A stretch of DNA of 64,000 nt from Clostridia bacterium (GTDB lineage Bacteria; Bacillota; Clostridia; Oscillospirales; Acutalibacteraceae), in contig JAFQVM010000030.1 in the NCBI GenBank assembly GCA_017407995.1, positions 62,001-126,000 of the forward strand, read 5' to 3'. A program made the position numbers and the translations under genes. Under the pieces are notes generated by a model that was given only the letters and a program-made list of their open reading frames with translations, ran no database searches and was not told where the DNA came from. Shown here piece after piece: positions 24,776 through 40,347 of the stretch (its first letter is position 1; every line of letters begins with the position of its first letter).

Positions 24776-24925
24776 ATGGGTTGCGGAAACAATTGGTGCA
24801 TTTTCCTTATCATCATCCTTCTGCTCTGCGGTGACAACGGCTGTGGATGTGGCTGTAACAACGGCTGTGGCGTCTCCAGAAATACAGACTGTGGATGCGG
24901 CTGCAACAACGGCTGTGGTTGCTAA
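24776..24925 (+). CDS. Cys/Gly-rich small protein, spore-surface-like
   Basis: A 49-aa product with 12 cysteines. It starts MGCGNNWC, continues with a hydrophobic IFLIIILLLC run and ends in alternating Cys-Gly-Asn repeats (NGCGCGCNNGCG twice). AAGGAGGG lies 7 bases before the ATG. Such Cys-Gly repeat peptides occur among spore coat/exosporium cross-linking proteins of Clostridia; that assignment is by composition only. The GC-repetitive sequence is clearly coding on this strand (all stops avoided, repeat in codon register). Confidence 0.65.
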   Translation: MGCGNNWCIFLIIILLLCGDNGCGCGCNNGCGVSRNTDCGCGCNNGCGC

Positions 24926-27317: not shown

Positions 27318-27908
27318 TCAGTTTCCTGACAGTGCGTTGCTCACACACTCCATCAAGCGTTTGTTTTCCGCAATCAAATCGTCGTTCTCAATGCTCATTG
27401 GCGGATAGAATATGACTTTTACTCCCCTGTCAAAAATCTTATACTTTCCTTTTATAACAAACGGTACTATCTGTGAATCGGTATCAGATGCCATTTTTAC
27501 TGCACCGAGCTTAAACGGCATTATAACATCATCAGTCCTGTTTATTGTGCCCTCAGGAAAAATACCGATTATTTTATCATCTTTTAATGTATCTCTTGCG
27601 GCTGACAAAGCATGTGCGTCCTTTGTTCTTCTGTTGACCGGAATTGCTCCAAGCCCTCTGAAGAAGAACGCAAACACACCCTTAAACAGCTCGTCCTTTG
27701 CCATGAAGTGCACGCATCTTTTCGTAGAGGCTGCAAGCAAAAAGCAATCCAGATTGTTCGTATGATTTCCCGCAAGTACAACTCGTCCGGTCGTAGGAAT
27801 ATGCTGTTTGCCTATTATTGATGGTTTGTATAAAAGCTTGAACAGCCCCACCAAAAACGGGCGCAGTATCCTATACAAAACCGGTTCGCCTGACTTCTTC
27901 TTTTCCAT
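27318..27908 (-). CDS. PlsC-type acyltransferase (second copy)
   Basis: Paralogue of the downstream gene: GNHTNNLDCF (H-x4-D) and FPEGTINRTDD are intact. Start at the ATG at 27908; the longer frame uses a TTG before the AAAGGA site. About 196 aa. The two copies share the IGKxxIP and PVNRR/S-GTD or TKD blocks but are well diverged, so they probably differ in acyl chain or acceptor. Confidence 0.82.
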   Translation of the reverse strand: MEKKKSGEPVLYRILRPFLVGLFKLLYKPSIIGKQHIPTTGRVVLAGNHTNNLDCFLLAASTKRCVHFMAKDELFKGVFAFFFRGLGAIPVNRRTKDAHALSAARDTLKDDKIIGIFPEGTINRTDDVIMPFKLGAVKMASDTDSQIVPFVIKGKYKIFDRGVKVIFYPPMSIENDDLIAENKRLMECVSNALSGN

Positions 27909-28010
27909 TTTCTCATTTCCTTTCAAACCATATAAAAAACAACGTACTGAGCATATTGCGCCCAGTTCGAAGTATTTTTGACTCTCTCAAAATCCCCTAA
28001 CAGAAAATCC

Positions 28011-28232
28011 TCACTTGCGCCTGCTGCTTCGCACAATTTTGGGTATACCCACCGCTGCAACTGCTGCAACAGCCGCACACGATATGGCCGCAATAGCAGG
28101 GGTCTTGACCGTTCTTCGGTCCACAACTGTATTAGAGCAAATGTCAATTATCCTTTTCGACATCTCATCACTTATATCCACCGTTTTCATCACTCTGACA
28201 TATTCCTGGATATACTTTTGATTAGACTTCAA
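28011..28232 (-). CDS. small membrane protein, candidate sigma-factor partner
   Basis: 73 aa from the TTG at 28232, which overlaps the stop of the ECF sigma gene and has GAGAGGGG 7 bases upstream. The N-terminal half is charged (SDEMSKRIIDICSN), followed by one Ala/Val-rich span (AIAAISCAAVAAVAAVGI) and a basic tail. Tight overlap with an ECF sigma gene and the one-span layout suggest an anti-sigma or sensor role; there is no zinc-binding HxxxCxxC motif. Family not recognised. Confidence 0.6.
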   Translation of the reverse strand: MKSNQKYIQEYVRVMKTVDISDEMSKRIIDICSNTVVDRRTVKTPAIAAISCAAVAAVAAVGIPKIVRSSRRK

Positions 28233-28731
28233 ACGAATCACCCCTCTCAAATTCCATTTTCAAAGAATTTCTCGCATACTGCAGACGTTTTCGTATCGCC
28301 GCCGGAGTTGCTCCTGTTATATCGGAAATCTCCTTTATTCGATAACCCTCTATATAATAAAGGTCCATGACAATCTTGTACTTTGGCGGAAGCTCCATTA
28401 TAGCCTCCATAATTCCTACATCTTTGTCATTGACACCTATATTTTTGACCTCGTTAATATCGACTGTCGCATGACGCATCCTAAATCGCAAAGCATTTTT
28501 ACAAATATTGGTCGCTACACGAATAAGCCACGCCTTGCGATGCTCCTCCGAGCTGAATGCAGGTGCCTTTGTGAAATACTTAAGAAACGTCTCTTGTACA
28601 GCATCCTCTGCGTCCGCTTCGTTACACAGCAAGACAAAACATATACGAAAAAGCATTTTGCTGTATTTTTCAACAACAAACTCTATATATGCCGAATCAT
28701 CTGTATTTTTATTTTTCTTTCCCTTTTGCAT
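28222..28731 (-). CDS. ECF-type RNA polymerase sigma factor
   Basis: 169 aa. Region 2 (EFVVEKYSKMLFRICFVLLCNEADAEDAVQ zone) contains the DAEDAVQETF core, and region 4 (IMELPPKYKIVMDLYYIEGYRIKEISDITG) ends in the helix-turn-helix TPAAIRKRLQYARN. Typical of extracytoplasmic-function sigma factors. Co-translated with the small membrane protein downstream. Its target promoters are unknown; the tiny-peptide region lies directly upstream. Confidence 0.88.
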   Translation of the reverse strand: MQKGKKNKNTDDSAYIEFVVEKYSKMLFRICFVLLCNEADAEDAVQETFLKYFTKAPAFSSEEHRKAWLIRVATNICKNALRFRMRHATVDINEVKNIGVNDKDVGIMEAIMELPPKYKIVMDLYYIEGYRIKEISDITGATPAAIRKRLQYARNSLKMEFERGDSFEV

Positions 28732-28911
28732 AAAGTTGCCTTTCCCACAAAGATAAGCACAACATTACCTGTATATAAAACACTTTGCAACTGTACTTTG
28801 TGATATTTTTATTTATTAATTTTTTATTAACAGAGATTTCCTTTGTTAAGCAATCAAAACATTAATAGTACATCAAATTATATCACAAAAGTCAAGCCAC
28901 TATAGTTATAA

Positions 28912-28950
28912 AAAAGCAGTACGGCAGAAAAAATCTGCCGTACTGCTTTT
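28912..28950 (-). terminator. terminator after amphipathic peptide gene a
   Basis: 17-base perfect arms beginning AAAAGCAGTACGGCAGA, 5-base loop, T run on the minus strand. Confidence 0.9.
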
Positions 28951-28961
28951 CCAAAAACAAA

Positions 28962-29078
28962 TTAGGCGAAGAGGCCGAGAATAAAATCAAATACTGCGCT
29001 AACGATTTCCTTTGCCTGTGTTGCTACTTCTGCAAGGTTAAGAATTTTCTCAACAAAAGCGAAAATTGTCTCAAGCAT
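28962..29078 (-). CDS. tiny amphipathic peptide a (38 aa)
   Basis: Starts MLETIFAFVEKILNLAEV and ends VFDFILGLFA. Acidic residues fall at a heptad-like spacing (E3, E10, E17, E24, D31), giving an amphipathic helix with a net charge of about -3. AGAGGGG lies about 10 bases before the ATG. It is a one-gene transcript with a perfect promoter and a strong terminator, which argues strongly that it is real. Its C-terminus (VFD-...-G-L/I-FA) matches that of the peptide at 39060. Resembles phenol-soluble-modulin-like peptides in general character only. Confidence 0.75.
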   Translation of the reverse strand: MLETIFAFVEKILNLAEVATQAKEIVSAVFDFILGLFA

Positions 29079-29132
29079 TTTATGTAACCCCTCTCTTCAT
29101 TGTCATGAAAACTATCGTGTTTCATCGGCTTT

Positions 29133-29161
29133 ATTATATCATTTTTGCATTTTAGTGTCAA
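29133..29161 (-). promoter_or_regulatory. promoter of peptide a
   Basis: Perfect TTGACA (29156-29161) and TATAAT (29133-29138) with a 17-base spacer. Confidence 0.8.
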
Positions 29162-29224
29162 TTTCTTACATTCTTAAAAAGAAATATAGTCATTAACAAT
29201 CCCTAAACAATTTATAAAATATAA

Positions 29225-29260
29225 AAAAGGAACTCCGCCGAAAATCGACGGAGCCCCTTT
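29225..29260 (-). terminator. terminator of the tiny-peptide operon
   Basis: Imperfect stem of about 15 pairs (GGAACTCCGCCGA / TCGACGGAGCCCC) with an AAA loop and T-rich tail, downstream of peptide b. Confidence 0.7.
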
Positions 29261-29319
29261 TGGTAGAGTATGAATAAGAAAAGTTTAGATGTGTTCAAAA
29301 ACCAATGTGTATAGCTGAA

Positions 29320-29481
29320 TCAGAAAATCAGCGAAAAGAAACCTTCAACAGCATTGAAAACAGCAAGTGCTGCATCCATAATCACAGTCTGAACTGCATT
29401 GCCTGCAGCTTCGGGAAATATAACTTCAATCAAAACCATCAACGGCACAAGCGGTAAAAACGGACCATAAAACCAAAGCAT
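29320..29481 (-). CDS. tiny membrane peptide b (53 aa)
   Basis: Begins MLWFYGPFLPLVPLMVLI and ends NAVEGFFSLIF. The GPFLPLVPL motif is identical in peptide d. The second half (about residues 30-53) is an amphipathic helix that resembles the C-termini of the 28962 and 39060 peptides. AGGAGG lies 6 bases before the ATG, overlapping the end of the preceding gene c, so translation is coupled. No signal cleavage site or charged leader is seen. Function unknown. Confidence 0.7.
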   Translation of the reverse strand: MLWFYGPFLPLVPLMVLIEVIFPEAAGNAVQTVIMDAALAVFNAVEGFFSLIF

Positions 29482-29492
29482 AAAGTATCCTC

Positions 29493-29594
29493 CTAATTCA
29501 AAAGACCAAGTTTAAACAAAATAGCTCCAAAAAGACCTGCACATATCCCATATACAGGCCATAGCCACGCAAGCAAAACCTGAAATATTGTCAT
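29493..29594 (-). CDS. tiny membrane peptide c (33 aa)
   Basis: Starts MTIFQVLLAWLWPVYGIC and ends FKLGLLN; almost wholly hydrophobic with a single span. AAAAGGAG lies 8 bases before the ATG. Spaced 11 bases from peptide b and 15 bases from peptide d. Similar in build to the peptide at 31903 (Leu-rich start, aromatic-Pro-Val core). Function unknown. Confidence 0.65.
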   Translation of the reverse strand: MTIFQVLLAWLWPVYGICAGLFGAILFKLGLLN

Positions 29595-29609
29595 TTTAAA
29601 ATTCTCCTT

Positions 29610-29765
29610 TTATTTCAAAATAAAGTTTAGAATACCATCAAATCCAGAGCCCAGATAATATGCTATACTTAAAATAGATGCCTGCACAGGCTCGCCAATT
29701 GACTCGGGTAACATCTCCAAAGCAAAAAGCAGAGGAACGAGCGGTAAAAACGGACCAAAAAACAT
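29610..29765 (-). CDS. tiny membrane peptide d (51 aa)
   Basis: Begins MFFGPFLPLVPLLFALEM: a paralogue of peptide b by the GPFLPLVPL block and by the short acidic link after it (LPESIGEPVQ against FPEAAGNAVQ). Ends DGILNFILK. AAAGGAGGAG lies 5 bases before the ATG. It follows the exported protein gene e by 21 bases, so all are in one transcript. Confidence 0.7.
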   Translation of the reverse strand: MFFGPFLPLVPLLFALEMLPESIGEPVQASILSIAYYLGSGFDGILNFILK

Positions 29766-29786
29766 ATTTTCTCCTCCTTTTATATC

Positions 29787-30818
29787 TTAAAAAAATCTTT
29801 GCTTAATATAACGATAAATATAATACGGAAGCATAAAAGGCTCAACTATAGCCGGAAGTATTATAAATGCCGTTATGAAAAAGATTGTAAAGTTTGCATA
29901 AGCAAAAAAGGCTTTAACCTTTTCCATAAATGTCGGCAATTTTAAAAGCAAAAGCTTTTCCGATGATACTATCGCCTTACCGTCAGCATCAACTATCTCC
30001 GCTCTCATGTAGAGCTCACCACTTTTAATATTGGGGAACGCCAGCTCCTCAACTATATATTCTCCCGTAGGTATTTCACCGACCTTGGTTTCTTTGCCGT
30101 TTGCAATGGCATACCATATAATCTTTTTTGCCTCAGGGTCGGATGAATAATAGTGTGTAACTATATCAATATCTTCATAATCCACTTCAACCAACTCACA
30201 GAAAGCCTTCGGCTCTTCACCGTTATAATAAAGCTCCTCAAAATCGCCTATGGGAACATTACCAAATGCAGCGCCCGACATCAAAGTTCTATCAACGGGT
30301 TTATTATTTTCATCATAAACTAACGTACAAGTTTTCATCTTGACTTGTCGCCACTCATTTTCTGTGCCGGCATAGCAATAAGCAAGATGTTGTCCGGGAA
30401 TTCGGTTTCCCTTTATTTCCCAAAAAATACTTCCCTCATAAAACTCCAAGCTTTTAGGAAGATTGATTTTATAATATTTTGAAGGTTCTTTACCGGCAGA
30501 CTTGTCGCCCACATAAAAAGCTTGACGCCCAATACTTGTGACTCCCTCTTTAACGGTAATAACATCAATTCTGTCATAATACTTGTACCAAGCCGGAAGC
30601 TTTTTTTGAGCTGTCGTCACCGAATACCAATCCATTTCTCCCTCGCCGCCGATGACAAGTTCACCGTCATCGTAGAGAGTCCATGTAAGATTTTCACCCT
30701 GTGCACCGCAAAAACCTGAATCAACAACATCTCTTGCTGCCGCAAATACGCTTGCAGGAACAATCGAAAACAGTATAACTGCACACAAAAAAACTGATAA
30801 AATTCTTTTTATTTTCAT
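29787..30818 (-). CDS. exported protein with BspA-like N-terminal region and C-terminal membrane anchor (e)
   Basis: 343 aa. Signal peptide MKIKRILSVFLCAVILF...ASVFA is followed by a region (SGFCGAQGENLTWTLYDDGE, then L-I-GEGEMDWYS) of the kind that opens BspA-like leucine-rich repeat proteins, with one LRR-like VKEGVTSIGRQAFY unit, an Ig-like stretch (about 215-285) and a C-terminal span (about 305-330) ending in a basic YRYIKQRFF tail. So it should be held in the membrane with its bulk outside. It is framed by tiny peptide genes on both sides. Shares its first residues and ribosome site (AAGGAGAAATAAAA) with gene g. Confidence 0.7.
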   Translation of the reverse strand: MKIKRILSVFLCAVILFSIVPASVFAAARDVVDSGFCGAQGENLTWTLYDDGELVIGGEGEMDWYSVTTAQKKLPAWYKYYDRIDVITVKEGVTSIGRQAFYVGDKSAGKEPSKYYKINLPKSLEFYEGSIFWEIKGNRIPGQHLAYCYAGTENEWRQVKMKTCTLVYDENNKPVDRTLMSGAAFGNVPIGDFEELYYNGEEPKAFCELVEVDYEDIDIVTHYYSSDPEAKKIIWYAIANGKETKVGEIPTGEYIVEELAFPNIKSGELYMRAEIVDADGKAIVSSEKLLLLKLPTFMEKVKAFFAYANFTIFFITAFIILPAIVEPFMLPYYIYRYIKQRFF

Positions 30819-30908
30819 TTTTATTTCTCCTTTTATATGTCGTTGTGTATCTTCGCTAATTCACAAAACCAGTAATTGATATAATAAATCTTAATATAAT
30901 CTCAACGA

Positions 30909-31046
30909 CTAAAAAATGCTCTGTATTGCTGTTTTGAGCAAATCCCAAATTACCTCCGGTTGAGTCTTAAGTGTTTCTATGACCGCCATCGCCGGACAAA
31001 CTGCAAACCATAAAAACAAATCACGTAAAGCTAAAAGAATTTCCAC
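30909..31046 (-). CDS. tiny membrane peptide f (45 aa, GTG start)
   Basis: Reads from a GTG 9 bases after AAGGAGG. Begins (M)EILLALRDLFLWFAVCP and ends DLLKTAIQSIF. First half hydrophobic, second half an amphipathic helix, the same two-part plan as peptides b and d. Lies between exported genes g and e. No family recognised. Confidence 0.65.
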   Translation of the reverse strand: MEILLALRDLFLWFAVCPAMAVIETLKTQPEVIWDLLKTAIQSIF

Positions 31047-31060
31047 GGTTATTTTCCTCC

Positions 31061-31609
31061 TTATATTTTAGAAATGAGCTTTCTGATACCATAATAGATA
31101 TAAACCGGTAAAAATATAATTTCAGAAATACAACCAAGTAAAACATACACGGTAAAAAGACCTAACAGCGGCGCTGATGCTATGGCTTCTTCAAAAAAAT
31201 CTTTAATCTTTCTGCCAAGAGGTCTGGAATCGAGCACCTTAATCGTCACAAAATCTTTAGCAATTATATTACCTCTTGAGTCCACTATCTCGACACGAAT
31301 CCAACAGTCACCTACCGAAACAGCCTTGACCCTCGCACCGACTTTAAATCCTGTTTCGCTGTCGGTTACATACTCATATTCACAGTATTTGGCTGCTGTC
31401 CATACTATCTGGGCATCCTCATATCCGCCCAAACTGTAGTCTATATAAATCTCTGTGGTTTCTCCCCGTTTTATTTTGTCTTTTCCGTCAATCTTAATTT
31501 CCACATAAGGAGTTGCATTCCCCGTGTTAGCCGCAAAAGCAGACATCGGAATTGCAGTAAACAAAATTGCTACACACAAAAAAACCGATAAAAATCTTTT
31601 TATTTTCAT
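31061..31609 (-). CDS. exported Ig-like protein with C-terminal membrane anchor (g)
   Basis: 182 aa. Signal peptide MKIKRFLSVFLCVAILF...MSAFA is nearly the same as in gene e, then one Ig-like/BIG-like domain (about 34-130; GDCWIRVEIVDSRGNIIAKD) and a C-terminal span (about 145-172) ending in basic YYGIRKLISKI. Same architecture as e but a shorter ectodomain. AAGGAGAAATAAAA before the ATG is identical to that of e, pointing to duplication of the 5' part. Confidence 0.7.
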   Translation of the reverse strand: MKIKRFLSVFLCVAILFTAIPMSAFAANTGNATPYVEIKIDGKDKIKRGETTEIYIDYSLGGYEDAQIVWTAAKYCEYEYVTDSETGFKVGARVKAVSVGDCWIRVEIVDSRGNIIAKDFVTIKVLDSRPLGRKIKDFFEEAIASAPLLGLFTVYVLLGCISEIIFLPVYIYYGIRKLISKI

Positions 31610-31902
31610 TTTTATTTCTCCTTCTTAAGTAATACATCTGTTTGCGTAAAGCAAGCCCTGCTTAATTCCGCCAAACGAACAAATCAATAACGGTATATAA
31701 AAAGTCCCCGTCGCAACGGAAAAAGTTTGCGTTGGTTTAACAAAAAAAGAGAAAACATTTTCCAAAAGACTTTATCAAATAGAAATTTAAATAATATAAT
31801 TGAGCGTAAATCTTTAGGCTATTTCTCATTGAAGTAAATAATACATATATCCATTATCCCAAAGCAATATTAAACCAATTCCGGTTACTTCCGAATCAGA
31901 AG
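31610..31902. other. gene-poor stretch between gene g and peptide l
   Basis: About 290 bases with no convincing gene. Minus-strand frames without ribosome sites give hydrophobic pieces (for example VATGTFYIPLLICSFGG around 31650-31700), so decayed peptide genes are possible. No terminator or promoter consensus was found. Confidence 0.4.
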
Positions 31903-32016
31903 TCAGTGAGGAAAAAGAATATCGTAAATCATTAGCGGCCATCCCGCTATCATAGCCCATACCGGTCCCAGAGTATAACCCAACAGCAGATACAGATCCC
32001 AAAGTATTTTTTCCAT
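31903..32016 (-). CDS. tiny membrane peptide l (37 aa)
   Basis: From the ATG at 32016: begins MEKILWDLYLLLGYTLGP and ends MIYDILFPH; a single hydrophobic helix with several Trp. ATAGGAGAG lies about 11 bases upstream. A 70-codon frame in another register overlaps it but has a TTG start inside the ribosome site and hydrophilic, low-complexity content, so I prefer this frame. Similar in size and composition to peptide c. Confidence 0.55.
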   Translation of the reverse strand: MEKILWDLYLLLGYTLGPVWAMIAGWPLMIYDILFPH

Positions 32017-32053
32017 CTTTTTCAATCTCTCCTATCAATATATTTTTAATCTT

Positions 32054-32173
32054 TTATCCTAAAAAGCGCATGAGAATTTCAAACATTTCAGTAAGACCAC
32101 TCCAAGCCAAAAGTCCTGTTCCAACTATAGGAGTTGCTATTGTCAAGTATAACAAAGCTCCTATCTCCTGAAA
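32054..32173 (-). pseudogene. truncated copy of peptide j
   Basis: The frame FQEIGALLYLTIATPIVG matches FQEIAALLYLTTVTPIAG of the intact peptide at 32678 and continues in parallel to the C-terminus, but an in-frame TAA replaces the first seven codons. A TTG with AGGAG 9 bases upstream could give a 33-aa product, so residual expression is possible. The break coincides with the end of the decayed gene at 32088-32504. Confidence 0.6.
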
Positions 32174-32504
32174 TTAAGATGAGTTCCGCAATTATCAGTT
32201 CCTTGCTGTTAAAATCAACTGCTGTTGCAATAGAAATTAAAATATTCTCCCCACTACTTCCACTAATTTGGAAATAATCGATGTTACCATAGGCCTCAAC
32301 TGAGGCAAAACCTGCAAAATCATCTCTAGTACTACCGATGACAACATCATTATTACCGCTGAAACCAATGTCATTACCTCCTTCATCTGCGTTATAGTCA
32401 TTAATTGTTATTTCTCTATGACCAATTGTATGGGCGACATAGATATCTGCCCCATCTTCATAATTGTACTCTGAATGAAAAATATTATATCCGTAAACAC
32501 TGTC
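32088..32504 (-). pseudogene. start-less open frame, decayed exported-type protein
   Basis: A 138-codon open frame without any start; the codon before it is TAA (32505-32507). The product is acidic and Gly/Asn/Asp-rich (HSEYNYEDGADIYVAH, NDIGFSGNNDVVIGS), like a piece of an extracellular beta-rich protein. Its last 29 codons run over the truncated peptide gene in another register, so the frame end is secondary. I do not recognise the parent protein. Confidence 0.4.
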
Positions 32505-32520
32505 TTATTCGCCTTTGAAG

Positions 32521-32643
32521 TTACAGCCATTGAAACAAAGCCTCAAAAATCTGAATTATCCAACTCGGAATAGCTATCGGTAAGGCTATCAAAGGCAGTA
32601 CCACGAACATATAAAATGCCATTGTAAATGTCTGTAAGTCCAT
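32521..32643 (-). CDS. tiny membrane peptide i (40 aa)
   Basis: Begins MDLQTFTMAFYMFVVLPL and ends IIQIFEALFQWL; one hydrophobic helix with prolines, then an amphipathic end. GGGGAAAAGGAT precedes the ATG. Follows peptide j by 34 bases. The next downstream frame is decayed. Confidence 0.65.
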   Translation of the reverse strand: MDLQTFTMAFYMFVVLPLIALPIAIPSWIIQIFEALFQWL

Positions 32644-32677
32644 ATCCTTTTCCCCTTAACATTTTGTTATATGTTTT

Positions 32678-32815
32678 TTACATCCATTGGGTTATAAAAT
32701 ACCAAGCTTGCATCAAACCGCTGTAAACCAAAAGCAACCCTCCTGCTATCGGTGTTACTGTAGTAAGATATAACAGCGCTGCTATCTCTTGAAACGCTAA
32801 CAAAATCCAGCTCAT
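32678..32815 (-). CDS. tiny membrane peptide j (45 aa), first gene of the array
   Basis: Begins MSWILLAFQEIAALLYLT and ends AWYFITQWM. AAAGGGAGG lies 5 bases before the ATG. It has a truncated paralogue at 32054. Just upstream are a 7-codon frame ending on the j start (ATATGA) and a long hairpin, so expression may be controlled at the leader level. No family recognised. Confidence 0.7.
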   Translation of the reverse strand: MSWILLAFQEIAALLYLTTVTPIAGGLLLVYSGLMQAWYFITQWM

Positions 32816-32853
32816 ATTTTCCTCCCTTTATTCATAACTTCTTTCCCCTTAAA

Positions 32854-32889
32854 CAACTTGGAGATTCACTGCACTGAATCTCCAAGTTG
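32854..32889 (-). promoter_or_regulatory. leader hairpin with GTGCAG loop, upstream of peptide j
   Basis: A perfect 15-bp stem (CAACTTGGAGATTCA and its complement) closes a GTGCAG loop on the minus strand. No T run follows, so it is not a standard terminator. Upstream lies GGAGG, 8 bases, then GTG-CAG-AAA-GGC-TTT-AAT-TGA, a possible 6-residue leader frame. A second hairpin with the same loop is at 34085-34110. Confidence 0.6.
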
Positions 32890-33025
32890 AGTCGGCTTCA
32901 ATTAAAGCCTTTCTGCACAAAAATGACCTCCAAAACTAAACTCTGATTTTCACCAACCTTCCCTTTAAATATTTTCCCTTGCAAATATACAACACCCAAA
33001 ACATCCAAAAAGAGGACAAAAAAAT

Positions 33026-33054
33026 AACAGCTCTTGCTTTTAAGCAGAGCTGTT
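33026..33054 (-). terminator. terminator of the second sigma/anti-sigma pair
   Basis: AACAGCTCT / AGAGCTGTT arms with an inner GCTT/AAGC extension, followed by TTTTTTT on the minus strand. It separates the sigma pair from the peptide operon. Confidence 0.85.
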
Positions 33055-33097
33055 AACAGTTATTATAATGGTTAAAAAATCTGTTCTATTATATTCC

Positions 33098-33436
33098 CTA
33101 TAACATGTTCATTTTTACAGGAGAGCAAACCTCAAAAATTGCCGCAGAAAGACTGTCTATCTTCTCAGCGAAAAAATCAACAACGGATTCTCTAACAGAG
33201 CTTATACTCATCAGCACCGAAATTAAAATTATAGCTACAGCAATAATTGTTAAAACGGTACCCTTCGTTTTTGAAAACGAGTGCGTACTGTCATACTCCA
33301 CCCTCTCAAAATAGCTTTCCATTTTCTTATTAAATTCGTCCGAAAACTCATACTCTATTTCGTCTTCATTGGGTATATCCGCAAACTCCTCAGATGTAAC
33401 TTCCCTAAACGCTTTTTTCGCTTCATCCCTTGTCAT
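33098..33436 (-). CDS. single-span membrane protein, probable anti-sigma factor
   Basis: 112 aa from the ATG at 33436 (MTRDEAKKAFREV), which overlaps the end of the sigma gene and has GAGGAAAG just upstream. Acidic cytoplasmic N-terminus (about 1-65), one span (about 70-88, TVLTIIAVAIILISVLMSI) and a short outer tail. The layout, overlap and order match sigma/anti-sigma pairs. A longer frame from 33628 would run through the sigma gene and is rejected. Confidence 0.7.
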   Translation of the reverse strand: MTRDEAKKAFREVTSEEFADIPNEDEIEYEFSDEFNKKMESYFERVEYDSTHSFSKTKGTVLTIIAVAIILISVLMSISSVRESVVDFFAEKIDSLSAAIFEVCSPVKMNML

Positions 33437-34007
33437 CTTTCCTCGTAACACCTCCGTTAACAGTAAGTCTGTCAATAAGCATACTTTTGCCTCTGACAAG
33501 CTGTTTCTTAACAGTATGTATGTTTCTGTACAAAAGCTCAGCAACTTCGGGAACCGACATTTCAAGCACAAAATGAAGATACAAAACCTCTTCATACTTT
33601 CCGTCAAGACTGCGGATTGCATCAACAAGCTCCTGATATGTCATTTTATCACAGATAGCGTCTAAAAAACTACTGTCGTTCAAATCTTCCTCTTTACTCA
33701 GAACAATATCATTATCCTGAAGCAGGACGTATTTCTTCCTATCCCTCTTCATGTTCAAAGCCCTGTTTTTCGTAGCTTTGAGCAGATAATTCTTCATATC
33801 CTGTTCGTTCGTTATTGTCTGCAGAACACGAAGATGTTTTTTTGCAATAACGTAAAAAACATCATGAACTGCATCCTCCGCATCCTCTCTGCTTTCAAGG
33901 ATTGACATTGCAAGCGTAACCATCTGTTTTCTGTGAGAAAAATACACTCTTTCAAACAGACGCTGATAAACTTCATTGCCAATCAAACTCAAATAAAGTG
34001 CTAACAT
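33423..34007 (-). CDS. ECF-type RNA polymerase sigma factor (second)
   Basis: 194 aa from the ATG at 34007 (MLALYLSLIGNE), with GAGAGGAG about 10 bases upstream. Region 2 is seen at ESREDAEDAVHDVFYVI, region 4 at YLHFVLEMSVPEVAELLYRNIHTVKKQ with its helix-turn-helix. Related in type to the 28222 sigma factor but clearly divergent. Overlaps its membrane partner by 14 bases. Confidence 0.88.
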   Translation of the reverse strand: MLALYLSLIGNEVYQRLFERVYFSHRKQMVTLAMSILESREDAEDAVHDVFYVIAKKHLRVLQTITNEQDMKNYLLKATKNRALNMKRDRKKYVLLQDNDIVLSKEEDLNDSSFLDAICDKMTYQELVDAIRSLDGKYEEVLYLHFVLEMSVPEVAELLYRNIHTVKKQLVRGKSMLIDRLTVNGGVTRKDDKG

Positions 34008-34046
34008 TTTTATTTTTCTCCTCTCTTTTCCCACTGTATACAACAC

Positions 34047-34118
34047 TTAAAAGAAGAAAACCGAGTACATTTTCAGACAATCTTTTTGAGTTTTCTGCAC
34101 AAAACTCAAATTTTTCAA
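34047..34118 (-). CDS. possible 23-codon frame upstream of the second sigma gene
   Basis: A TTG lies 6 bases after AAGGAGG, the best ribosome site in this stretch, and opens a 23-codon frame (starts KNLSFVQKTQ after the initiator, ends YSVFFF) stopping 39 bases before the sigma start. A GTGCAG-loop hairpin lies inside it. It could be a leader peptide coupled to the sigma gene, or merely the remnant of one. A longer frame in another register overlaps it. Confidence 0.3.
   Translation of the reverse strand: MKNLSFVQKTQKDCLKMYSVFFF
34085..34110 (-). promoter_or_regulatory. hairpin with GTGCAG loop upstream of the second sigma gene
   Basis: A perfect 10-bp stem TTTGAGTTTT / AAAACTCAAA closes a GTGCAG loop on the minus strand, the same six-base loop as the hairpin ahead of peptide j. 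Confidence 0.5.
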
Positions 34119-34144
34119 TCTGCACCTCCTTACATATGAAAAAA

Positions 34145-34175
34145 AGACGCTGACTTTTCATAAAAATCAGCGTCT
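34145..34175 (-). terminator. terminator of tRNA-Gly
   Basis: GACGCTGA / TCAGCGTC stem followed by seven T on the minus strand, immediately after the tRNA. Confidence 0.85.
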
Positions 34176-34180
34176 TGAGA

Positions 34181-34256
34181 TGGAGCGGATGACGAGGCTC
34201 GAACTCGCTACCTCCACCTTGGCAAGGTGGCGCTCTACCAGATGAGCTACATCCGC
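34181..34256 (-). tRNA. tRNA-Gly (GCC)
   Basis: 76 nt cloverleaf with acceptor GCGGATG/CATCCGC, anticodon arm CCACC-TTGCCAA-GGTGG (anticodon GCC), T-arm with GTTCGAG and an encoded CCA end. Confidence 0.97.
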
Positions 34257-34269
34257 AACTGCAAGAGAG

Positions 34270-34298
34270 ATTATAACAAAGGTGTTTGCTTTTGTCAA
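34270..34298 (-). promoter_or_regulatory. promoter of tRNA-Gly
   Basis: Perfect TTGACA (34293-34298) and TATAAT (34270-34275), spacer 17. No separate promoter is seen for the sigma gene downstream, so read-through may contribute there. Confidence 0.85.
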
Positions 34299-34336
34299 GG
34301 GCAGAAAGCGATTTTTTATCACTCTTTTTATTTTTA

Positions 34337-34368
34337 TTGCGGACGGCAAAATATTATGCCGTCCGCAA
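34337..34368. repeat. inverted repeat downstream of the MATE gene
   Basis: 11-bp perfect arms TTGCGGACGGC / GCCGTCCGCAA, 10-base AT loop. It lies just after the MATE stop codon but lacks a T run on that strand, so termination is uncertain. Confidence 0.5.
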
Positions 34369-34378
34369 TAAACCATTA

Positions 34379-35743
34379 TTATTTTCCAAGCCGTCTGTAC
34401 TCAACGGCAAACATTACAGAGGTTACGCACACAGCGATAAAATCCGCAATCGGCTCAGCAATAAACACCCCAAGCACAGGATTGGATGTGATGATATGCG
34501 GCATTATAAATATCAGCGGAATCAAAAGCAGAACTTTACGCAAAAGAGCAAGAAAAACCGAAGTCTTTGCATTGCCGAGTGCTATAAACGTCTGTTGGCA
34601 AGCTATCTGTATACCGAAAAGGCAAGCCGCCGCCATATACACACGCATGGACCAGCTCGAAAACTCCGCCAGTGCTGCATTGTTTGTAAATATACCTATA
34701 AATACCTGCGGAACAAGCATCGCAATCAGCCAAAGCGACCCTGAATATATCAAAGACGTTTTAAGCAAAAGCTTAAATGTGCTTTTAACCCTATCAATAT
34801 TGCCCGCACCGTAATTGTAGCTTATTATCGGCTGTGCACCTTGTGTCAATCCCTGAAGCGGCAACAGTGAAAACTGCATAACACTGCTCAGTATGGTCAT
34901 TGAGCCGACAGCTATATCTCCGCCGTATTTCAGCAGACTTGTATTAAAACTGACAGACAATATGCTCTCGGTAAACATCATAATAAACGGCGACACACCC
35001 AGAGCAACACACGGTAGAATTATCTTACCACTGAGTAAAAAATTCTTGGGTCTTATCTTAAGGACAGTTCTCTTGCCTGTCAAAAATATCAGTATCCACG
35101 CACAAGAAACTGCTTGAGAGATAATAGTAGCCAGTGCAGCACCCTTTACACCCATATTAAAGCCAAAGATGAATATCGGGTCAAGCACTATGTTACACAC
35201 AGCACCTATTGCCACTGTTATCATACCAATCTTTGCAAAACCCTGAGCGTTAATAAACGCATTTAGTCCAAGTGCCAACTGCACAAACACTGTACCCAAA
35301 GAATATATTTTCATATAATCCCATGCATATACTATAGTATTATCGCTCGCTCCGAAAAGCATCAAAATATCACGGCCGAAAAATTGAATAACAGCCGTTA
35401 ATATCACAGCGATGATAACGAGCATAGCAGTACAGTTGCCAAGAATTTTTTCAGAAATTTCAGGCTTGCCTTTGCCCATCATTATAGATGCTCTCGGTGC
35501 TCCGCCCATGCTGACAAGTGCTGCAAACGCAGACACCGCCATAATAAGCGGCATAGTAACACCAACACCCGTCAATGCATCGGGACCCACATTCGGTATG
35601 TGCCCGATATACATTCTGTCAACCAGGTTGTACAGCAGATTTATAATCTGCGCAAGTATCGCAGGCAGTGCCAGCTTAAAAAGCAAACTACCTATTTTAT
35701 CTCGCCCTAAATCTGCTTCTTGTTTAGTTTTTTCTCTTCCCAT
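34379..35743 (-). CDS. MATE family efflux protein (first)
   Basis: 454 aa, about twelve membrane spans in two similar halves, typical of multidrug and toxin extrusion (MatE) proteins. NLVDRMYIGHIPNVGPDALTGVGV and QGLTQGAQPIISYNYGA are family-like segments at the start of each half. Uses a cation gradient; the substrate is unknown. GGAGG 5 bases before the ATG. Transcribed towards tRNA-Gly. Confidence 0.9.
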   Translation of the reverse strand: MGREKTKQEADLGRDKIGSLLFKLALPAILAQIINLLYNLVDRMYIGHIPNVGPDALTGVGVTMPLIMAVSAFAALVSMGGAPRASIMMGKGKPEISEKILGNCTAMLVIIAVILTAVIQFFGRDILMLFGASDNTIVYAWDYMKIYSLGTVFVQLALGLNAFINAQGFAKIGMITVAIGAVCNIVLDPIFIFGFNMGVKGAALATIISQAVSCAWILIFLTGKRTVLKIRPKNFLLSGKIILPCVALGVSPFIMMFTESILSVSFNTSLLKYGGDIAVGSMTILSSVMQFSLLPLQGLTQGAQPIISYNYGAGNIDRVKSTFKLLLKTSLIYSGSLWLIAMLVPQVFIGIFTNNAALAEFSSWSMRVYMAAACLFGIQIACQQTFIALGNAKTSVFLALLRKVLLLIPLIFIMPHIITSNPVLGVFIAEPIADFIAVCVTSVMFAVEYRRLGK

Positions 35744-39059: not shown

Positions 39060-39221
39060 ATGGATTTTGCTCAGATTATAGAGCTCATCAAAAAGGCTAT
39101 TGAGGTCATCAAGTCAATCGCTGAGTTTGTTGAGACGACCGGAATCGTTGATAAGGTCAAGGAATACGCTCCTGTTGTCTTTGATGCAATCAAGGACTTT
39201 GTTGGCGGAATTTTTGCCTAA
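39060..39221 (+). CDS. amphipathic peptide k (53 aa)
   Basis: Starts MDFAQIIELIKKAIEVIK and ends AIKDFVGGIFA. Charged and hydrophobic residues alternate in a helical pattern almost from end to end (6 Lys, 9 Asp/Glu, net about -3). AAGGAGG is 8 bases before the ATG and a strong terminator follows, so it is an independent short gene. The C-terminal VFDAIKDFVGGIFA resembles AVFDFILGLFA of peptide a at 28962. No signal peptide, no Cys. Role unknown; a membrane-active or secreted peptide is plausible. Confidence 0.75.
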   Translation: MDFAQIIELIKKAIEVIKSIAEFVETTGIVDKVKEYAPVVFDAIKDFVGGIFA

Positions 39222-39270: not shown

Positions 39271-39306
39271 AGAAGACTTACTCTTATGAGTAGGTCTTCT
39301 TTTTTT
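39271..39306 (+). terminator. terminator of peptide k
   Basis: 13-base arms AGAAGACTTACTC / GAGTAGGTCTTCT (one G-T pair), TTAT loop, T run to 39306. Confidence 0.85.
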
Positions 39307-39336
39307 GCGTCTATGTGTCTTATTAAAAAATATTGG

Positions 39337-39342
39337 TATACT
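39337..39342 (+). promoter_or_regulatory. extended -10 promoter of the bile salt hydrolase gene
   Basis: TGGTATACT (extended -10 with TATACT at 39337-39342) lies 31 bases before the start; no good -35 box. Confidence 0.45.
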
Positions 39343-39372
39343 AAAATCAAAATATATTACGGAGGGATTTTA

Positions 39373-40347
39373 ATGTGTACTGCTGCAACTTATAAAACAA
39401 AGGACCACTATTTCGGAAGAACTTTGGACTGGGAGTCATCCTTCAACGAGAACGTTACTGTTACTCCAAGAAACTTTACGTTCAAATTCAGAAAAGTTGA
39501 TGAGCTTTTAACGCATTATGCAATAATAGGAGTCGCAGTCGTATCACAAGATTATCCTATGTATTTTGATGCCACAAACGAAAAAGGTCTTAGTATGGCA
39601 GGCCTGAATTTTCCCGACAACGCCGTTTACAAAGCTCCTGTTGACGGCATGGATAACATTGCTCCGTTTGAGTTCATCCCATGGATTCTCGGACAATGTT
39701 CTGATGTCAGCGAAGCTGAAATGATGCTAAAAAAAATAAATCTTGTTGATATAAATTTCAGCAACGAGTTTCCGCTTTCGCCTCTGCATTGGATAATCGC
39801 AGACTCTGAGCGTTCAATCACAGTTGAGCCGTTAGAAAGCGGATTGAAGGTATATAACAATCCCGTAGGCGTACTGACGAACAACCCGCCATTTGATTTT
39901 CATATGTTGAACCTATGTCACTATATGGGTGTATCAAAAAATGAACCCGAGAACAGGTTTTCCGAAAAGCTTTCTCTTTCGCCATACAGTCGAGGCATGG
40001 GTGCCGTCGGTCTGCCGGGTGACTTATCATCCGCTTCCCGTTTTGTCAAGGCAACTTTTACTAAAATGAACTCTGTTTCAGATGACACCGAAAAAGAAAG
40101 CATCAGCCAGTTTTTCCACATACTCAGTTCTGTTGAACAGCAAAGAGGCTGTGTAGACATGGGCGATGAAAAATATGAAATTACACTCTATACCTCATGT
40201 TGCAACACAAACAAAGGCATATACTATTACACGACCTATGAAAACAGACAGATATCAGGAATAGATATGCACAAAGAAAACTTAGACGGCGATAAATTGA
40301 TTTCTTACCCCATGATTACAACTCAGCAGATTAACATTCAAAATTAA
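39373..40347 (+). CDS. bsh: bile salt hydrolase (choloylglycine hydrolase)
   Basis: Ntn-hydrolase that cleaves the amide of conjugated bile acids. The start is the ATG at 39373, after GGAGGG, so that after Met removal Cys2 becomes the N-terminal nucleophile (MCTAATY). Equivalents of the known catalytic residues are Cys2, Arg16 (FGRTLD), Asp19, Asn79 (AGLNFPD), Asn170 (VLTNNPP) and Arg223 (SASRFVK). LPGDLSSASRF and YTSC-...-KGIYYYTTYEN are characteristic of bile salt hydrolases rather than penicillin V acylases. 324 aa, no signal peptide, so cytoplasmic. The upstream in-frame ATG at 39286 lies inside the terminator of peptide k and is rejected. Confidence 0.9.
   Translation: MCTAATYKTKDHYFGRTLDWESSFNENVTVTPRNFTFKFRKVDELLTHYAIIGVAVVSQDYPMYFDATNEKGLSMAGLNFPDNAVYKAPVDGMDNIAPFEFIPWILGQCSDVSEAEMMLKKINLVDINFSNEFPLSPLHWIIADSERSITVEPLESGLKVYNNPVGVLTNNPPFDFHMLNLCHYMGVSKNEPENRFSEKLSLSPYSRGMGAVGLPGDLSSASRFVKATFTKMNSVSDDTEKESISQFFHILSSVEQQRGCVDMGDEKYEITLYTSCCNTNKGIYYYTTYENRQISGIDMHKENLDGDKLISYPMITTQQINIQN

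What the first reader, a model, noticed from the sequence alone, without database searches (positions are those of the whole stretch)
28962..32815. Array of tiny hydrophobic peptide genes interleaved with two anchored exported proteins
Seen directly: at least eight short frames (33-53 codons, plus a truncated one) on one strand, each with its own ribosome site, most 10-35 bases apart, read in one direction with two signal-peptide proteins that end in a membrane span and basic tail. Peptides b and d share GPFLPLVPL; j and the 32054 remnant share FQEI-ALLYLT--TPI. None has a leader-peptide cleavage motif, Cys, or a modification enzyme nearby. Inference: a multi-component membrane peptide system (leaderless bacteriocin-like, membrane-modulating or surface-complex subunits). 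I do not recognise it as a described family.
Basis: partly seen in the sequence, partly recalled or inferred. Interest (0 to 1): 0.85.

Follow-up and report, generated by a model that had tools for sequence, protein, structure and literature searches.

The report
Tiny membrane-peptide genes with surface proteins
A few related, uncultured gut bacteria carry a shuffled row of genes for very small membrane peptides packed between surface-protein genes; several of the peptides are conserved proteins of no family that we could find described, and they may be parts of one membrane structure.

Summary
The array is real. The minus strand of 28941-32830 holds 6 ATG-started hydrophobic frames with ribosome sites, against a mean of 0.06 and a maximum of 1 in 300 shuffles. 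Similar loci occur in other species. Peptides b and d belong to a family (my name: F1, MFFGPFLP-VP) found in 7 of 45 genomes of the genus at E<1e-20 and in one further genus. In these 8 genomes F1 lies in one run of genes with exported proteins that end in a membrane tail; the other peptides differ. Changes are frame-specific and purifying: F1 pN<pS in 45 of 45 pairs. Peptide k resembles the membrane tail of such an exported protein (0 of 20000 shuffles). Peptide i is probably spurious; a is a separate orphan unit. Libraries give the peptides no family above cut-off. They do not look like cationic leaderless bacteriocins. Best reading, inferred: a modular membrane assembly whose subunits come with or without an exposed domain.

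The parts
32678..32815 (-). peptide j (45 aa); perhaps of one family with L031 6627-6734
   Evidence: ATG with AAAGGGAGG upstream; own remnant copy E 4e-7; the likeness to L031 is weak
32521..32643 (-). peptide k (40 aa), free-standing likeness of the C-terminal membrane tail of g-type exported proteins
   Evidence: phmmer E 6e-4 and 6e-3 to the L050 g protein in two renderings, 0.011 to L051 g; SW 68, 0 of 20000 shuffles; weak ribosome site AAGGGG
32124..32501 (-). open stretch, read as remains of a larger protein; frame i (32237-32368) lies in another frame of it and is probably not a gene
32054..32173 (-). truncated second copy of peptide j (FQEIGALLYLT...)
   Evidence: stop codon directly before FQEI, no start
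31903..32025 (-). peptide h (37 aa from ATG 32016, 40 aa from TTG 32025)
   Evidence: 78% identical to L050 1890-2006 in G051; pN 0.12, pS 0.32
31061..31609 (-). protein g, 182 aa: signal-peptide-like start, one Ig-like module (by look), membrane tail
   Evidence: profile shares the membrane-proximal module with e (hhalign prob 98.9); six relatives aligned from six other array loci
30909..31046 (-). peptide f (45 aa, GTG start)
   Evidence: AAGGAGG 9 bases upstream; no relative found in the fetched loci
29787..30818 (-). protein e, 343 aa: signal-peptide-like start, cap related to BspA/LRR_5 proteins, Ig-like module, membrane tail
29610..29765 (-). peptide d, family F1
   Evidence: AAAGGAGG 7 bases upstream; family alignment A3
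29493..29594 (-). peptide c, family F3 (MTIFQ-A-LWP)
   Evidence: AAAGGAG 9 bases upstream; relatives in L031 and L050
29320..29481 (-). peptide b, family F1
   Evidence: AGGAGG 7 bases upstream; alignment A3
29225..29261 (-). intrinsic terminator behind the array
   Evidence: 17-pair stem and T run
29133..29161 (-). consensus sigma-70 promoter of peptide a, TG before the -10
   Evidence: 12 of 12
28962..29078 (-). peptide a (38 aa, net -3), separate transcription unit, orphan
28913..28949 (-). terminator of peptide a
   Evidence: 17-base stem arms, loop 3, T run

Best explanation
The locus encodes a modular membrane assembly on the cell envelope. Shown: several families of 32-58 residue hydrophobic peptides without signal peptides are co-directional and interleaved with exported-looking proteins that end in a membrane tail; the families that could be compared are under purifying selection; their set changes from genome to genome around a recurring F1 peptide; and one free peptide (k) resembles a tail beyond chance. 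Inferred: peptides and tails insert in the membrane and pack against each other, so that one hetero-oligomeric bundle carries Ig-like and LRR-type domains outside the cell, the free peptides being subunits without an outer domain that set the size, spacing or specificity of the assembly. What the outer domains bind is not known; BspA/LRR_5 and Ig-like domains suggest binding of a surface or a polymer in the gut.
For: Co-occurrence in the 8 F1 genomes. Purifying selection: pN<pS in F1 45 of 45 pairs, F2 6 of 6, F3 6 of 6, F4 3 of 3, F5 1 of 1, F8 1 of 1, F10 1 of 1. k against the g tail of G051: 0 of 20000 shuffles. e and g share the Ig-like and tail module. L049 10556-10867 reads as a signal peptide plus short linker plus tail without an outer domain, a possible intermediate form. 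31 of 38 array peptides are acidic overall, with conserved Pro and Glu inside hydrophobic stretches in F1 and F2, which I take to fit packing better than attack on membranes.
Against: Of 760 peptide-tail pairs only k stands out: the highest real z is 7.5, and ten shuffled sets reached 3.2 to 6.0; pairs above z 4 number 10 in the real set, 0 to 8 in the shuffled and 2 in the reversed set, so the rest may be chance. A relative of F4 exists alone in ten genus genomes, away from such exported proteins as far as the fetched flanks show, so that family can act without them. Co-location could be mere gene capture. F1 is absent from 38 of 45 genomes of the genus at E<1e-20 (many are incomplete), so the function is dispensable.
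Confidence: 0.42

Rival explanations
1. Secreted or self-acting membrane-active peptides (leaderless multi-peptide bacteriocin or modulin-like surfactants), with the exported proteins as immunity or surface partners.
For: Multi-peptide leaderless bacteriocins with 3-4 peptides exist (PMC6131525, passages); no leader is visible; the repertoire varies between species; peptide a and the solitary F4 peptide of the own genome look singly transcribed by their promoter-like sites and terminators; an ABC transporter gene lies 1.5 kb from the G008 array on the other strand.
Against: Of 38 array peptides measured 31 are acidic, 3 neutral, 4 basic (net -6 to +2); hydrophobicity is high; no transporter gene seen inside the arrays; sequences are conserved rather than diversifying.
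Confidence: 0.17
2. A capture site: unrelated small membrane proteins and surface proteins gathered by recombination, each with its own function, not one machine.
For: Gene content and site differ between genomes; 4 genomes share one chromosomal slot, others use other sites; decayed pieces in the window; other genes in the runs, such as an M28-like peptidase that 5 of its 9 genomes hold without F1 and proteins of 145, 200, 201 and 283 residues.
Against: Most genes in the runs are of one type, tiny membrane peptides or tail proteins; the same families recur together (F1 and F2 neighbours in 4 loci; F3 next to g in 2); k-tail likeness.
Confidence: 0.24
3. Small chaperone- or regulator-like membrane proteins that help insertion, folding or turnover of the tails of the exported proteins.
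For: Tight spacing in one direction; small membrane proteins of other bacteria act on larger membrane partners (recalled), and one F8 peptide has a weak sub-cut-off likeness to AcrZ, a pump-associated small protein (E 0.026, 14.6 bits against a cut-off of 26.2); the tails carry no LPXTG-like motif.
Against: The number (ten in L031) is larger than I would expect for accessory factors.
Confidence: 0.13
4. Type I toxin-like peptides with antisense RNA control.
For: Length and hydrophobicity fit.
Against: PMC6563280 (passages) gives a charged C-terminus, lysine-rich in C. difficile phage homologues, and an antisense RNA; here most C-ends are hydrophobic (F2 ends in charged residues); promoter-like sites in the region are not in clear excess (23 found on both strands, shuffle mean 17.9, sd 5.0); a run of many does not fit.
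Confidence: 0.04

Closest known systems
Multi-peptide leaderless bacteriocins (aureocin A70 kind; that example recalled)
   Same: several leaderless hydrophobic peptides in a row, each with its own ribosome site
   Different: here mostly acidic, very hydrophobic, no exporter gene seen inside the run, interleaved with exported anchored proteins
BspA-type LRR_5 surface proteins
   Same: L031 8104-8940 and L059 9323-10147 carry LRR_5; e's cap matches solved LRR proteins
   Different: e has a short outer domain, Ig-like module and membrane tail, in a run of membrane peptides
Small subunits of membrane complexes (KdpF, CydX kind; recalled)
   Same: single-span microproteins encoded next to larger membrane partners
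   Different: many families per run with shuffled content; no known enzyme complex
Phenol-soluble modulins (recalled)
   Same: leaderless, amphipathic; peptide a comes closest
   Different: array peptides carry conserved Pro/Glu in hydrophobic stretches and lie in runs with surface proteins

Membership tests
Leaderless bacteriocin | net cationic peptide of low to moderate hydrophobicity | tested here: not met
   32 of 39 peptides measured are acidic, 4 basic; family property from PMC6131525 passages
Leaderless bacteriocin | no leader peptide, active from formyl-Met | tested here: inconclusive
   no leader seen in the sequence; activity not testable
Leaderless bacteriocin | dedicated export or immunity genes nearby | tested here: inconclusive
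   none inside the arrays among the genes scanned; in G008 an ABC transporter gene lies 1.5 kb away on the other strand; not every flanking gene was scanned
Type I toxin | membrane span followed by charged C-terminus | tested here: not met
   most C-ends hydrophobic, e.g. ...FAFIF...QSIF; the F2 members are exceptions
Type I toxin | antisense RNA gene overlapping | tested here: inconclusive
   four plus-strand promoter-like sites of at least 10 of 12 in 4 kb, total not clearly above shuffles
BspA-type LRR_5 protein (protein e) | LRR_5 match by curated score | tested here: not met
   no Pfam match for e above cut-off; but the e profile matches solved LRR proteins 4h09 (E 1e-12) and 4gt6 (E 1e-8) over part of its length
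Sortase-anchored surface protein | LPXTG-type motif before the span | tested here: not met
   no [LIFVN]PxT[GNAS] in the last 60 residues of 19 tail proteins; NCBIfam gave g a sub-cut-off likeness (E 0.008, 16.7 of 47 bits) to an LPXTG family over its first 45 residues only
Phenol-soluble modulin | secretion by a dedicated exporter and surfactant activity | not testable with these tools
   recalled family; no assay

The most novel reading that the evidence does not exclude
A new kind of envelope assembly built combinatorially from interchangeable membrane modules of about 30-50 residues, each present either free (a peptide) or fused to an exported domain (a tail), with a recurring F1 core and a repertoire that species reshuffle, so that the surface of the cell changes by swapping gene cassettes.
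Probability: 0.28. Interest if true: 0.9.

Novelty: categorically new. Interest (0 to 1): 0.7.

Why it matters
Genes under 60 codons are often left out of annotation (general knowledge), so runs made mostly of such genes are easily missed. Here conservation between species shows that several families in such a run are coding and recur with the same kind of surface protein in gut Clostridia. If they build one assembly, it would be a new way to anchor and diversify surface proteins without sortase, and a concrete test case for what lineage-specific membrane microproteins of gut bacteria do.

Tried and rejected
Mobile element: no relative of peptide d among 72,556 plasmid or 50,697 phage records, and none confirmed in viral contigs (53 stretches matched a pattern). 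Defence system: PADLOC gave nothing for 8 proteins. Peptides as tails in general: profile comparison of F1 with the g family was negative, F4 with e negative, F1 with F2 and F1 with F4 only weak. Tail likeness of h and others: not above the shuffled sets, so only k is claimed; the profile contains k, so its hit there is by construction. RNA elements: no Rfam match above its gathering score in 27900-34500 except a tRNA. ECF sigma factors on both sides of the window array as its regulators: I did not recognise such genes beside the other F1 runs in the gene lists, but did not scan for them, so this is left open. XRE-type genes lie divergently before or within the run in L049, L051 and L059, and before the M28-like gene in L104 and L105, whose genomes have no F1; I saw none beside the window array.

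Limits of the counts: the borders were drawn by me around the frames, so its comparison (30 same-strand and 1 opposite frame in 30.4 kb, against 25 on both strands in 427.9 kb) is tilted in favour; 9 of those 25 are solitary F4 genes that I had searched for and 2 are further array peptides in L050. One search left out F6, F7, F9, F10 and single peptides; F10 was added. Alignment A1, used, held peptide d without its first Met. The scan used one exact nine-residue pattern, so more distant relatives could be missed. F1 was sought in the 45 held genomes of the genus and a sample of 398 of the family. Pfam was run on 14 of the array peptides or solitary relatives, NCBIfam on 15, not on every one. 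Of 8 genomes with the Gfo/Idh gene (14 searched) I looked at 7. Signal peptides and spans were judged by eye.
Full report
WHAT IS THERE. On the minus strand of 28913-32815 lie, in order of reading, peptide j, peptide k, a decayed stretch with a truncated j copy, peptide h, exported protein g, peptide f, exported protein e, peptides d, c and b, a terminator, and then peptide a as a separate unit. Counting only ATG-started frames of 30-60 codons with at least five bases of ribosome-site match and mean hydropathy of 0.7 or more, the minus strand of 28941-32830 holds 6 (b, c, d, h, i, j); 300 dinucleotide shuffles gave a mean of 0.06 and a maximum of 1; the rest of the window (60 kb, both strands) holds 4. 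One of the 6, i, I reject below.

Peptides c and f each have a cysteine. Peptide a is not part of the array: a 17-pair terminator precedes it, it has a perfect consensus promoter and a terminator of its own, and a search of 45 genus genomes gave, besides itself, only four matches at E 0.23-0.43. The frame at 32237 (i) lies across an open 126-residue stretch in another frame that resembles part of a 1329-residue frame in G008 (E 4e-4, 43% over 64 residues) and has no Pfam match. I read this as the remains of a larger protein, and i as probably spurious. The stretch overlaps the start of the truncated second j copy.

THE SAME KIND OF LOCUS ELSEWHERE. A search with protein e in 40 relatives gave 29 genomes with some match, most of them covering only the first third; matches in other genomes over some 290-320 residues were four (G002, G006, G008, G013). 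Beside those of G006 (L031) and G008 (L032) lie further runs of small frames; beside that of G002 (L030) one, of family F4; beside that of G013 (L033) I saw none in the part of the list shown. L031 holds ten small frames and three exported tail proteins. The family of b and d, F1 (M-FFGPFLP-VP-LLE-LPE-IG-P-Q), was then sought in all 45 held genomes of the genus: 7 have it at E<1e-20 (own, G006, G008, G041, G048, G049, G051), an eighth only at E 0.1. A sample of 398 genomes of the family gave 3, of which one (G279) is of another genus; 2 of 135 genera. A scan of a collection of 84,980 species with one exact F1 motif confirmed 6 loci, titled Clostridia or Oscillospiraceae bacterium; four titles name deer or sheep colon or rectum as source, two name none. 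In the 8 F1 genomes F1 lies in the same run of genes as one or more proteins with a signal-peptide-like start and a membrane tail. F2 (5 of 45 genus genomes at E<1e-10) neighbours F1 in L031, L032, L049 and L050; in G050 a stretch like F2, without a clear start codon, lies before an exported protein and F1 is absent. Window c is F3, with relatives in L031 and L050. Window h is 78% identical to a peptide in L050. For window f no relative was seen in the fetched loci. Window j has its own truncated copy and only a doubtful relative in L031.

CODING EVIDENCE. In every pair compared, nonsynonymous differences per site are fewer than synonymous: F1 45 of 45, F2 6 of 6, F3 6 of 6, F4 3 of 3, F5 1 of 1, F8 1 of 1, F10 (h) 1 of 1 and the solitary F4 genes 45 of 45. 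Pairs within a family are not independent. Control frames: read one base off, F1 gives 28 of 45, solitary F4 9 of 45, F2 6 of 6, F3 4 of 6, F10 1 of 1; two bases off, F1 1 of 45, solitary F4 7 of 45, F2, F3 and F10 none. So the weight lies with F1 and F4; the small families alone would not prove the frame. Peptides a, f, j and k have no sound pair to test.

ANATOMY. The 39 peptides measured have 32-58 residues, net charge from -6 to +2 (32 acidic, 3 neutral, 4 basic) and hydropathy maxima of 1.1 to 2.9 over 19 residues. Conserved Pro and Glu sit inside the hydrophobic stretches of F1 and F2. Protein e consists of a signal-peptide-like start, a cap whose profile matches solved LRR proteins (4h09, E 1e-12) and a PHROG of unknown function (E 2e-7), an Ig-like module and a tail; g is the Ig-like module and tail alone; the two profiles match over 147 columns (prob 98.9). 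Ig-like is my reading of the sequence; no library named it. Tails fall into kinds. One kind, F-x-FIILP-x-P-x-P, is seen in window e and in the g proteins of G048, G051 and G041, and peptide k aligns with it. k against the G051 g tail scores 68; none of 20000 shuffles of k reaches it (best 58), and the highest z of the real set (7.5) exceeds the maxima of ten shuffled sets (3.2 to 6.0) and of the reversed set (4.6) (the call does not name the pair, which was k with the G051 tail). k against G048's g tail is at the edge of the null (z 6.1), against window e and G041's g tail within it. So one membrane module seems to occur free and fused. A possible intermediate, signal peptide plus linker plus tail, is L049 10556-10867.

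EVOLUTION. In G006, G049, G051 and G048 the array lies between a GH92 glycosidase and a Gfo/Idh gene (the Gfo/Idh gene of G049 by likeness only); in G006 a DUF362 gene and a radical SAM gene lie in the slot as well, the latter ending 97 bases from the array on the other strand. The content differs in all four. Beside the orthologous Gfo/Idh gene of 7 further genomes, the window's own among them, the gene lists show no array. An M28-like gene (sub-cut-off in Pfam) is in 9 of 45 genomes, in the run in 4 (G006, G041, G048, G051) and without F1 in 5. F4 has a solitary relative (MLAIIAFLSDIP-YIAE-ISKLTGAD) in the window's own genome and nine other genus genomes, once in a further genus of the family and doubtfully in another family (3 of 394 genomes of the order including the own). 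Four of these lie just behind an RNA pseudouridylate synthase gene.

MECHANISM. See Best explanation. Shown: conserved coding families, recurrent union of peptides and tail proteins, modular change, k-tail likeness. Inferred: membrane insertion, mutual packing, a shared assembly. Not known: what the outer domains bind.

COMPARISON. Passages of PMC6131525 and PMC6563280 were read for the features of leaderless bacteriocins and of type I toxins; the peptides differ from both in charge. Of PMC11364881 I read passages, which say that only 6.1% of small protein families were assigned a conserved domain. Text searches for microproteins with surface proteins and the like showed no description in the rows listed (20, 12, 10, 6 and 6 rows of larger sets), and five F1 and F4 motif strings occur in no paper of the library. 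The library holds open-licence papers only, without supplements here.

VERDICT. A real, lineage-restricted family of gene runs; its peptides match no family in the libraries searched; function inferred only.

Noticed in passing
window 39060-39221 (+): Another frame with a strong ribosome site (AAGGAGGT), 53 residues, MDFAQIIELIKKAIEV...KDFVGGIFA, faintly like peptide a (E 0.46), just upstream of a choloylglycine-hydrolase-family gene (39286-40347).
   Followed up: partly
L099 6712-6864 (own genome C9) and L094-L098, L100-L102, L108: Solitary 48-53 residue microprotein family MLxIIAxLSDIPxYIA-ISKLTGAD in ten genus genomes, some with a promoter-like site and terminator of their own; related to array family F4; no match above cut-off in the libraries searched for the members tried.
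   Followed up: partly
window 24776-24925 (+) and L032 9782-9934 (+): Cys/Gly-rich 49-50 residue peptide beginning MGCG beside an iron-containing alcohol dehydrogenase-like gene in both genomes, with the block inverted relative to the array.
   Followed up: no
window 28011-28731 and 33098-34046 (-): Two ECF-type sigma factor genes, each followed by an overlapping small gene with a hydrophobic stretch, flank the array.
   Followed up: no
L049 6335-6673, L051 5967-6191, L059 7593-7817, L104 7644-7982, L105 515-739: XRE-type (HTH_3) regulator genes divergent from an array gene or from the M28-like gene.
   Followed up: partly
L032 5501-5587 and 5634-5720 (+): Tandem near-identical 28-residue frames MAVFAAIVITLTVTT-VLIAKDDSP upstream of the G008 array.
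   Followed up: no
window 32855-32888: A 14-base perfect inverted repeat (AACTTGGAGATTCA) upstream of peptide j, without a clear T run on the minus strand.
   Followed up: no
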